From Loxodes magnus (lineage: Eukaryota > Ciliophora > Karyorelictea > Loxodida > Loxodidae), in the NCBI GenBank assembly GCA_946699065.1, contig CAMPDV010001198.1, forward strand, positions 1 through 64,000: a stretch of 64,000 nt of DNA, in the 5' to 3' direction. A program made the position numbers and the translations under genes. Under the pieces are notes generated by a model, which saw only the letters and a list, made by a program, of their open reading frames with translations, ran no database searches and was not told where the DNA came from. Shown in pieces: positions 13,312 through 64,000 of this stretch. The stretch's first letter is position 1. Every line of letters starts with the position of its first letter.

Positions 13312-16300
13312 TCATCACTTCCCGATACGATGAACTCTGAATCACTGGATATAGTCACAGCATTTACAGATCTAGTGTGACCACTCATGGTCTTACAGGT
13401 ACCTGTCTTGACGTCCCATAGTCTCACCGTCTTATCTTAACTTCCCGATACGATGAACTCTGAATCACTGGATATAGTCACAGCATTTGCAGATCTAGTG
13501 TGACCACTCATGGTCTTACAGGTACCTGTCTTGACGTCCCATAGTCTCACCGTATTATCATCACTTCCCGATACGATGAACTCTGAATCACTGGATATAG
13601 TCACAGCATTTACAGATCTAGTGTGACCACTCATGGTCTTACAGGTACCTGTCTTGACTTCCCATAGTCTCACCGTATTATCATCACTTCCCGATACAAT
13701 GAACTCTGAATCACTGGATATAGCCACAGATCATACATAATGTGTGTGAACACTCATTGTCTTACAGGTACCTGTCTTGACGTCCCATAGTCTCGCCGTA
13801 TAATCATGACTGCCCGATACGATGAACTCTGAATCACTGGATATAGCCACAGATAATACAGAATCTGTGTGACCACTCATGGTCTTACAGGTACCTGTCT
13901 TGACGTCCCATAGTCTCACCGTTTCATCATAACTTCCCGATACGATGAACTCTGAATCACTGGATATAGCCACAAATAATACAACACTAGTGTGACCACT
14001 CATGGTCTTACAGGTACCTGTCTTGACGTCCCATAGTCTCACCGTATAATCTCCACTTCCCGATACGATGAACTCTGAATCACTGGATATAGCCACAGAT
14101 AATACAGAATCTGTGTGACCACTCATGGTCTTACAGGTACCTGTCTTGACGTCCCATAGTCTCACCGTCTGATCATCACTTCCCGATACGATGAACTCTG
14201 AATCACTGGATATAGCCACAGATCATACATAATGTGTGTGACCACTCATGGTCTTACAGGTACCTGTCTTGACGTCCCATAGTCTCACCGTATAATCTCC
14301 ACTTCCCGATACGATGAACTCTGAATCACTGGATATAGCCACAGATAATACAGAATCTGTGTGACCACTCATGGTCTTACAGGTACCTGTCTTGACGTCC
14401 CATAGTCTCACCGTATTATCATCACTTCCCGATACAATGAACTCTGAATCACTGGATATAGCCACAGATCATACATAATGTGTGTGAACACTCATTGTCT
14501 TACAGGTACCTGTCTTGACGTCCCATAGTCTCGCCGTATAATCATGACTGCCCGATACGATGAACTCTGAATCACTGGATATAGCCACAGATAATACAGA
14601 ATCTGTGTGACCACTCATGGTCTTACAGGTACCTGTCTTGACGTCCCATAGTCTCACCGTTTCATCATAACTTCCCGATACGATGAACTCTGAATCACTG
14701 GATATAGCCACAGATCATACATAATGTGTGTGACCACTCATGGTCTTACAGGTACCTGTCTTGACGTCCCATAGTCTCACCGTATAATCTCCACTTCCCG
14801 ATACGATGAACTCTGAATCACTGGATATAGCCACAGATAATACAGAATCTGTGTGACCACTCATGGTCTTACAGGTACCTGTCTTGACGTCCCATAGTCT
14901 CACCGTCTTATCATCACTTCCCGATACGATGAACTCTGAATCACTGGATATAGCCACAAATAATACAACACTAGTGTGACCACTCATGGTCTTACAGGTA
15001 CCTGTCTTGACGTCCCATAGTCTCACCGTATAATCTCCACTTCCCGATACGATGAACTCTGAATCACTGGATATAGCCACAGATAATACAGAATCTGTGT
15101 GACCACTCATGGTCTTACAGGTACCTGTCTTGACGTCCCATAGTCTCACCGTCTGATCATCACTTCCCGATACGATGAACTCTGAATCACTGGATATAGC
15201 CACAGATCATACATAATGTGTGTGACCACTCATGGTCTTACAGGTACCTGTCTTGACGTCCCATAGTCTCACCGTCTGATCATCACTTCCCGATACAATG
15301 AACTCTGAATCACTGGATATAGTCACAGATAATACAGAATCTGTGTGACCACTCATGGTCTTACAGGTACCTGTCTTGACGTCCCATAGTCTCACCGTCT
15401 GATCATAACTTCCCGATACGATGAACTCTGAATCACTGGATATAGTCACAGCATTTACAGATCTAGTGTGACCACTCATGGTCTTACAGGTACCTGTCTT
15501 GACGTCCCATAGTCTCACCGTATTATCTACACTGCCCGATACGATGAACTCTGAATCACTGGATATAGTCACAGATAATACAGAATCTGTGTGACCACTC
15601 ATGGTCTTACAGGTACCTTTCTTGACGTCCCATAGTCTCACCGTATTATCTACACTGCCCGATACGATGAACTCTGAATCACTGGATATAGCCACAGATA
15701 ATACAGAATCTGTGTGACCACTCATGGTCTTACAGGTACCTGTCTTGACGTCCCATAGTCTCGCCGTATAATCATGACTGCCCGATACGATGAACTCTGA
15801 ATCACTGGATATAGCCACAGCATTTACAGATCTAGTGTGACCACTCATGGTCTTACAGGTACCTGTCTTGACTTCCCATAGTCTCACCGTCTGATCATCA
15901 CTTCCCGATACGATGAACTCTGAATCACTGGATATAGCCACAGATAATACAGAATCTGTGTGACCACTCATGGTCTTACAGGTACCTGTCTTGACGTCTC
16001 ATAGTCTCACTGTATAATCATCACTTCCCGATACGATGAACTCTGAATCACTGGATATAGCCACAGATAATACAACACTAGTGTGACCACTCATGGTCTT
16101 ACAGGTACCTGTCTTGACGTCCCATAGTCTCACCGTATTATCTACACTGCCCGATACGATGAACTCTGAATCACTGGATATAGTCACAGATAATACAGAA
16201 TCTGTGTGACCACTCATGGTCTTACAGGTACCTTTCTTGACGTCCCATAGTCTCGCCGTATAATCATGACTGCCCGATACGATGAACTCTGAATCACTGG

Positions 16301-64000: not shown

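What the first reader, a model, noticed from the sequence alone, without database searches (positions are those of the whole stretch)
13312..64000. Over 50 kb of one unbroken WD40 blade array, about 412 units and still running
Seen: a strict 123-bp period to the window edge with almost no length change. Known: propellers usually have 4-8 blades, and large WD40 proteins carry at most a few dozen. If expressed as one protein this would be among the largest known (at least 16,900 residues). If not, it is a protein-derived satellite that still keeps its blade frame over long stretches.
Basis: partly seen in the sequence, partly recalled or inferred. Interest (0 to 1): 0.9.

Follow-up and report, generated by a model that had tools for sequence, protein, structure and literature searches.

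The report
Giant WD40 blade library beside receptor gene
A single-celled ciliate carries hundreds of kilobases of nearly identical protein-blade modules next to a family of sensor-like genes that use the same modules in ever-changing combinations, which looks like a natural parts library for making new recognition proteins.

Summary
The array is real: 412 minus-strand WD40 blade units of 123 bp at 13311-64000, running on to the contig end at 124478 (904 units). The assembly's size matches the Loxodes magnus macronuclear genome, and the linked gene reads in the karyorelict code (TAA/TAG=Gln, TGA=Trp or stop), so the in-frame 'stops' are most likely sense codons. It is probably not one giant protein: its 3' end lacks the constant blades and runs into AT-rich DNA with a dead LINE. 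Its head has 101 scored matches in the genome, many pointing to contig ends. The same 123-bp array was found upstream of the gene on 15 of 17 sampled contigs, one at least 236 kb long and bounded inside its contig. Heads are conserved; blades 2-4 share a near-uniform scaffold but differ at five codons, four of them matching those under positive selection in fungal HET receptors. Copies with identical heads carry different blades. Best reading: a blade reservoir exchanging with a recognition-gene family. Expression and direction of transfer are untested.

The parts
13311..64000 (-). Tandem array of 41-codon WD40 blades (123 bp), 412 units here, continuing to contig position 124478 (904 units)
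   Evidence: seven units fold as a WD40 propeller
13191..13311 (-). 3' edge of the array: truncated, diverged last unit, then about 40 codons to a TGA; no constant blades 6-7
   Evidence: homologous edge on contig C1027 (L094)
3049..5637 (-). Gene for a RING-like/Gln-rich/pentapeptide/seven-blade WD40 protein, open under table 27/28, TGA stop at 3051-3049
   Evidence: family
5494..5622 (-). RING-like zinc finger of that gene (below Pfam's cut-off)
   Evidence: PF13445 E 0.017, 15.6 bits against a cut-off of 25.2
4132..4299 (-). Pentapeptide repeats of that gene
   Evidence: PF00805 E 7.3e-8
3973..4095 (-). Blade 1 (first half constant, second half array-like)
3604..3972 (-). Blades 2-4, exchangeable, 0-1 nt from units of the C1198 array
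   Evidence: L022: 1, 1, 0 mismatches of 123
3200..3603 (-). Blade 5 (first half array-like) and constant blades 6-7, with TGA read as Trp (low end approximate)
11226..11876 (-). Remnant of a non-LTR retrotransposon reverse transcriptase in the spacer between gene and array
   Evidence: RVT_1 E 6.2e-26 read under table 28; other frames and TGA codons
1..852 (.). 80-bp satellite at the contig end downstream of the gene
   Evidence: 16-mers shared with the start of contig C417

Best explanation
The array is a tandem library of WD40 blades that shares one recombining pool of blade variants with a multigene family of RING-like/pentapeptide/seven-blade proteins, one member of which lies about 7.7 kb downstream on the same strand. 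Shown: the gene family, its conserved head and conserved blades 6-7, exchangeable blades 2-4 identical or nearly so to array units, a near-uniform scaffold with five hypervariable codons, and different blade sets in copies with identical heads. Inferred: gene conversion or unequal exchange moves blades or half-blades, mainly from the nearby array, into the gene; a chromosome end holds a potentially expressed seven-blade receptor plus its untranslated blade reservoir; and the proteins recognise variable targets (non-self or intracellular intruders), perhaps marking them through a RING-type ubiquitin ligase activity. In the ambiguous stop code (TAA/TAG=Gln, TGA=Trp away from the mRNA end) substitutions can hardly end a blade array early; frameshifts can.
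For: Gene and family. Ten in-frame genes: head pS .180/pN .052; blades 2-4 scaffold pS .044/pN .028; their hypervariable codons pS .076/pN .423; hypervariable codons of blades 6-7 conserved (pN .033.080). 37 gene blades, 35 signatures; 21 and 20 half-blade haplotypes but only 4 full pairs shared with the C1198 array. Three gene blades are exact copies of C1198 units, two in genes on other contigs. L027 against L028: head 0/1233, blades 1-5 57/615; L026 against L027: head 1/1233, blades 1-5 60/615, blades 6-7 0/246. Four predicted codons are the four of highest entropy of 41 in 207 array blades from 14 other contigs (prediction). Array upstream of the gene on 15 of 17 sampled contigs. Gene blades closer to the own-contig array than to others, 10 of 20,000 permutations.
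Against: No RNA, protein or time-course data: expression and direction of transfer are not shown. Gene, spacer and array edge are one duplicated block, so own-contig likeness can partly be shared ancestry; the own array ranks first for only 5 of 13 contigs and 6th or lower for 5. No array in the samples from C202 (one) and C19 (five). Two of 15 fetched gene loci (L023, L033) are frameshifted in the blades. L025 has a head joined to array units, so an array is not always headless. The RING-like match is below Pfam's cut-off.
Confidence: 0.6

Rival explanations
1. Passive coding-derived satellite: the blade region of a gene ran away by unequal crossing-over and spread with the chromosome-end block. 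It exchanges with the genes only because the sequences are alike; there is no selected reservoir role.
For: Block-wise duplication; rare scaffold variants of the array look neutral, 17/235 non-synonymous against 3/71 synonymous; large local duplications; two other unit families form arrays too; L. magnus assemblies are very rich in tandem repeats (PMC11441545).
Against: Hypervariable codons with 0 of 14 possible synonymous and 18 of 49 non-synonymous single-step changes in the array, and the same codons in three unit families; mosaic genes with new blade sets. These show selection on the shared pool, though not on the array as such.
Confidence: 0.27
2. One giant protein: the array is the body of a single gene whose head lies beyond the contig end.
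For: Under table 27/28 only three frame breaks in 50 kb, at least one (63603) absent from its near-identical twin; L025 on contig C1881 joins a complete head to at least nine array units.
Against: No constant blades or tail at the 3' edge on C1198 and C1027; no head recognised by eye at the 5' edge of the C9 array, of another unit family; in L025 head and blades are in different frames and the head is identical to L024 on the same contig over the first 2,829 bp compared, so it may be a misassembly; rare scaffold variants neutral; a complete seven-blade gene already exists. The 5' end of the C1198 array was not seen.
Confidence: 0.07
3. The length is largely an assembly artefact: repeats were expanded or wrongly joined.
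For: Contigs C1198 and C119 end inside arrays and C1503 within array sequence; near-exact 16-kb duplication; Falcon with an identity threshold of 0.96, about 20-30x coverage, no unzip step (PMC11441545); the authors blame misassembly of low-complexity repeats for the size difference between their MIC and MAC assemblies.
Against: Assembled from CCS (HiFi) reads; units are diverse (256 distinct of 885); the C40 array is bounded on both sides inside a 1.21-Mb contig; arrays on several contigs carry private variants.
Confidence: 0.06

Closest known systems
Fungal HNWD/NWD NOD-like receptors (Podospora het-d, het-e)
   Same: Near-identical WD40 repeats under concerted evolution, hypervariable codons in the d-a loop and b-c turn around a conserved residue, highly conserved repeats followed by divergent ones at the C-terminus (PMC1805685 passages; PMC12222747 abstract and passages).
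   Different: About 10-12 conserved repeats per functional allele and 69 in the sequenced strain, against 904 on one contig here; a NACHT/HET architecture, which Pfam did not show in the head here; no adjacent blade array reported in the passages seen.
Segmental gene conversion from silent cassettes (Borrelia vlsE; chicken immunoglobulin pseudo-V genes)
   Same: What it works like: a tandem set of donor cassettes beside one complete gene, exchange by segments, heads kept. vlsE from a search listing with abstract openings; the chicken case and the telomere-near place of vlsE are recalled.
   Different: Different proteins, no homology; 15 or so cassettes there (recalled), thousands here; transfer and its direction are not shown here.
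Tetrahymena 90-bp-exon LRR genes
   Same: Ciliate repeat-protein genes expanded in subtelomeric and pericentromeric regions next to a LINE (PMC6564038 passages).
   Different: LRR exons separated by introns, no long donor array in the passages seen, different code and protein fold.
Highly repetitive WD40 propellers of bacteria and fungi (WRAP, PDB 2ymu, 7bie)
   Same: Near-identical blades; the top fold matches of the array model.
   Different: The largest blade count in a published survey was 47 (PMC9218822 passages).

Membership tests
WD40 beta-propeller | Repeat of about 40 residues with GH...WD motif, four-stranded blades closing into a ring | tested here: met
   Pfam PF00400 E 1.4e-73 for the gene; AlphaFold2 of seven array units pLDDT 93.6, pTM 0.88; PDB matches 2ymu, 7bie
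Karyorelict genetic code (table 27) | TAA and TAG read as Gln, TGA as Trp or stop | tested here: met
No tRNA or eRF1 was examined.
Fungal HNWD receptor | High internal conservation with hypervariable top-face codons | tested here: met
   the register was matched by spacing and loop place, not by an alignment to HET-E
Fungal HNWD receptor | NACHT/STAND NTPase and HET effector domain | tested here: not met
   Pfam scan of the head gave only pentapeptide and sub-threshold RING-like matches
TRIM-like RING E3 ligase | Functional RING finger | tested here: inconclusive
   zf-RING_UBOX E 0.017, below cut-off
TRIM-like RING E3 ligase | B-box between RING and coiled coil | tested here: not met
   No B-box among the five Pfam matches of the head at E up to 1
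Silent-cassette conversion system | Donor array beside a complete gene, sharing segments with it | tested here: met
   15 of 17 sampled contigs; shared blades and half-blades; mosaics
Silent-cassette conversion system | One-way transfer from unexpressed donors to an expressed gene | not testable with these tools

The most novel reading that the evidence does not exclude
A free-living protist runs an immunoglobulin-like diversification system: at many chromosome ends a seven-blade RING-WD40 recognition gene is continually rewritten, half a blade at a time, from an adjacent untranslated library of up to several thousand blade cassettes, and a genetic code without dedicated stop codons keeps the library readable.
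Probability: 0.4. Interest if true: 0.96.

Novelty: new variant of a known kind. Interest (0 to 1): 0.9.

Why it matters
Recombining repertoires fed by donor libraries are known from vertebrates and from antigenic variation in pathogens (recalled), and WD40 repertoires from fungi (PMC1805685, PMC12222747). This would be a repertoire of that kind in a free-living ciliate, with blade arrays far larger than the 47 blades that were the maximum of a published survey. It makes testable whether a single-celled eukaryote diversifies recognition proteins by cassette conversion, and whether codes without dedicated stops favour such libraries. It also tells annotators that part of the tandem repeat load of this genome is protein-coding in origin.

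Tried and rejected
Standard-code reading: 102 open runs in the window's array; rejected once the linked gene proved full of in-frame TAA/TAG kept in its relatives. Table 6 (TGA the only stop): rejected because TGA sits at the conserved Trp of the RIWN motif in 10 of 10 genes and in hypervariable slots of families 2 and 3. Protein database searches: the gene gave 21 matches, those with names being bacterial or fungal; the head with pentapeptides alone gave none. AlphaFold2 of the gene's C-terminal part from a single sequence failed (pLDDT 44.6) and is not used. Rfam at gathering threshold on 1-16000 and the tRNA search on the window gave nothing. Literature: WD40 with ciliate and Condylostoma, and WD40 with Loxodes, gave 0 papers; the listings of searches showed no title or abstract opening about such arrays; 'WD40' does not occur in the main text of the L. 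magnus genome paper (its supplement was not seen). The library is partial, so this is no proof of absence. A genome-wide count of arrays by pattern did not complete, so the number of arrays is unknown; the 99,038 WD40 and 2,376 head candidates of the first looks are unscored.

Full report
What was checked. The array is as described, and longer. It lies on the minus strand, with 412 units at 13311-64000 and 408 of 411 spacings exactly 123 bp. The rest of the contig, fetched, shows it running to the contig end at 124,478: 904 units, 885 of exactly 123 bp, with 256 distinct sequences. Units 359-489 recur as 491-621: 127 of 131 pairs identical, one with a single mismatch, three differing in length. 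One of those three is the unit at 63603, so that frame break is probably a sequence or assembly error, and about 16 kb of the length may be spurious.

Organism and code. The held genome has 705,730,643 bases, matching the 706-Mbp Loxodes magnus MAC assembly (PMC11441545; passages and sections 8 and 9 seen). The sequence had pointed to such a code first: the frame at 5637-3049 is full of TAA/TAG, and TGA falls on the tryptophan of a WD repeat. Ten relatives hold 49-55 TAA and 17-23 TAG in their first 810 codons, and TGA at that tryptophan in 10 of 10. The in-frame 'stops' of the array are therefore most likely sense codons. Under table 27/28 the window's array is four open runs broken only by indels, the longest 6109 codons.

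The missed gene. At 5637-3049 (minus) lies a gene with a RING-like finger (below cut-off), a Gln-rich region, pentapeptide repeats (E 7.3e-8) and seven WD40 blades. Blades 1 and 5 are part array-like and part constant, 2-4 are array units, 6-7 are divergent and constant. Of 15 loci fetched, eleven distinct ones are in frame through seven blades by eye (L036 repeats L035), two are frameshifted in the blades (L023, L033), and one joins a head to array units (L025); two further genes read also show seven. The head has 101 scored matches among 2376 candidates (some may be alleles or assembly duplicates). Minus-strand copies lie near contig starts (34 of 64 below 20 kb, against 6 of 37 plus-strand ones). 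Of 20 of the 37 plus-strand copies whose contig length I looked up, 17 lie within 18 kb of the contig end, three of them on contigs of about 30 kb or less. No telomere repeat was seen, so 'subtelomeric' is an inference.

Selection and exchange. Ten genes entered the Nei-Gojobori counts; dropped were L025, L036, L023, L033 and L030 (one codon longer). Head: pS 0.180, pN 0.052. Linker and pentapeptide: 0.231, 0.045. Blades 2-4 scaffold: 0.044, 0.028. Seven hypervariable codons of blades 2-4: 0.076, 0.423. The blades are thus homogenised while certain codons are diversified. The seven codons were chosen because they vary, so the fairer test is a prediction: HET-D/E repeats of Podospora show strong positive selection at codons 7, 9, 25 and 27 around conserved 8 and 26, in the d-a loop and the b-c turn (PMC1805685, passages); by spacing and loop place these are our 18, 20, 36 and 38. 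In 207 array blades from 14 other contigs (those caught by a motif) these four have the four highest entropies of 41 codons. In 37 gene blades, with 35 different signatures, they and codon 17 are the five most variable. Two other array families with 42-codon units vary mainly at the same five, with lesser variation at some flanking codons. Within the C1198 units, codons 16-23 and 34-40 form two linkage blocks with little linkage between them, so shuffling acts below the level of a blade.

Mosaics. L027 and L028 differ at 1 of 1495 upstream and 0 of 1233 head sites, but at 57 of 615 sites in blades 1-5 and 19 of 246 in blades 6-7. L026 and L027 differ at 1 of 1233 in the head, 60 of 615 in blades 1-5 and 0 of 246 in blades 6-7 (78 pairs of 13 loci, the 14 closest printed). 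Three gene blades are exact copies of C1198 units, two of them in genes on other contigs; the longest exact run shared with that array is 235 bp. Of 37 gene blades, 21 first-half and 20 second-half haplotypes occur in the C1198 array, but only 4 full pairs.

Arrays beside genes. On 17 gene-bearing contigs looked at upstream, counting C1198, the 123-bp array is there on 15, and not in the samples from C202 (one) and C19 (five). On C40, 16 of 16 samples from 959 to 1195 kb are array and 0 of 21 from 10 to 954.6 kb, so an array of at least 236 kb, if continuous between samples, lies bounded inside a 1.21-Mb contig. On C142, 6 of 6 samples from 20 to 400 kb are array, and the two at 500 and 575 kb are not. 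Spacer samples from C409, C859, C875 and C417 match the C1198 spacer at 94.6-100%, and the array's 3' edge on C1027 matches at 88.6%; the samples C417 15 kb and C202 do not match. So the whole block has been duplicated. Gene blades lie closer to the same-contig array sample than to others (mean 5.59 nt against 6.87; 10 of 20,000 permutations; 13 contigs with at least 7 units; own array first for 5, sixth or lower for 5). Shared ancestry of the block may contribute.

Function. Seven array units fold as a WD40 propeller (pLDDT 93.6, pTM 0.88). By the model's strand assignment the variable codons lie just before and in the first strand and between the second and third strands of each blade; that this is the interaction face is taken from the Podospora paper and general WD40 knowledge. 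A conserved head with a diversified recognition face suggests a recognition repertoire. Against a giant protein: no constant blades at the array's 3' end and neutral-looking rare scaffold variants (17 of 235 non-synonymous, 3 of 71 synonymous, against 14 and 11 for commoner ones). For it: L025, a head joined to array units, though in different frames and with a head identical to L024 on the same contig over the first 2,829 bp compared, so it may be a misassembly. I put the reservoir reading at 0.6, passive satellite at 0.27, giant protein at 0.07 and artefact at 0.06. Donor role, expression and timing remain inferred.

Noticed in passing
L016, L017 (C119), L018 (C1503), L019 (C9), L021 (C1832); L020 (C272): Two further WD40 blade families with 42-codon units form long arrays elsewhere in the genome; they vary mainly at the same five codons, with TGA used as Trp in variable slots. 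Their head genes were not sought.
   Followed up: partly
L025 (C1881:39464-40696 and flanks): A complete head runs straight into array units, but in a different frame; the head equals L024 of the same contig. Either a recent head-array fusion or a misassembly.
   Followed up: partly
contig C1198, about 80.3-48.0 kb (units 359-489 and 491-621): A 131-unit block is repeated nearly exactly: a very recent duplication or an assembly artefact.
   Followed up: partly
window 11226-11876: Dead LINE reverse transcriptase in the spacer between gene and array; in Tetrahymena a LINE also sits beside expanding repeat genes (PMC6564038).
   Followed up: no
window 1-852 and 841-3060: 80-bp satellite and AT-rich repeats downstream of the gene; 841-3060 shares many 16-mers with the starts of contigs C859, C2904, C875, C409 and C632 (100-353 per contig), few with C142 and C417; the satellite is shared with C417.
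   Followed up: partly
window 1044-1320: A stretch that looks richer in G+C than the AT-rich DNA around it; no Rfam match at gathering threshold. Not identified.
   Followed up: no
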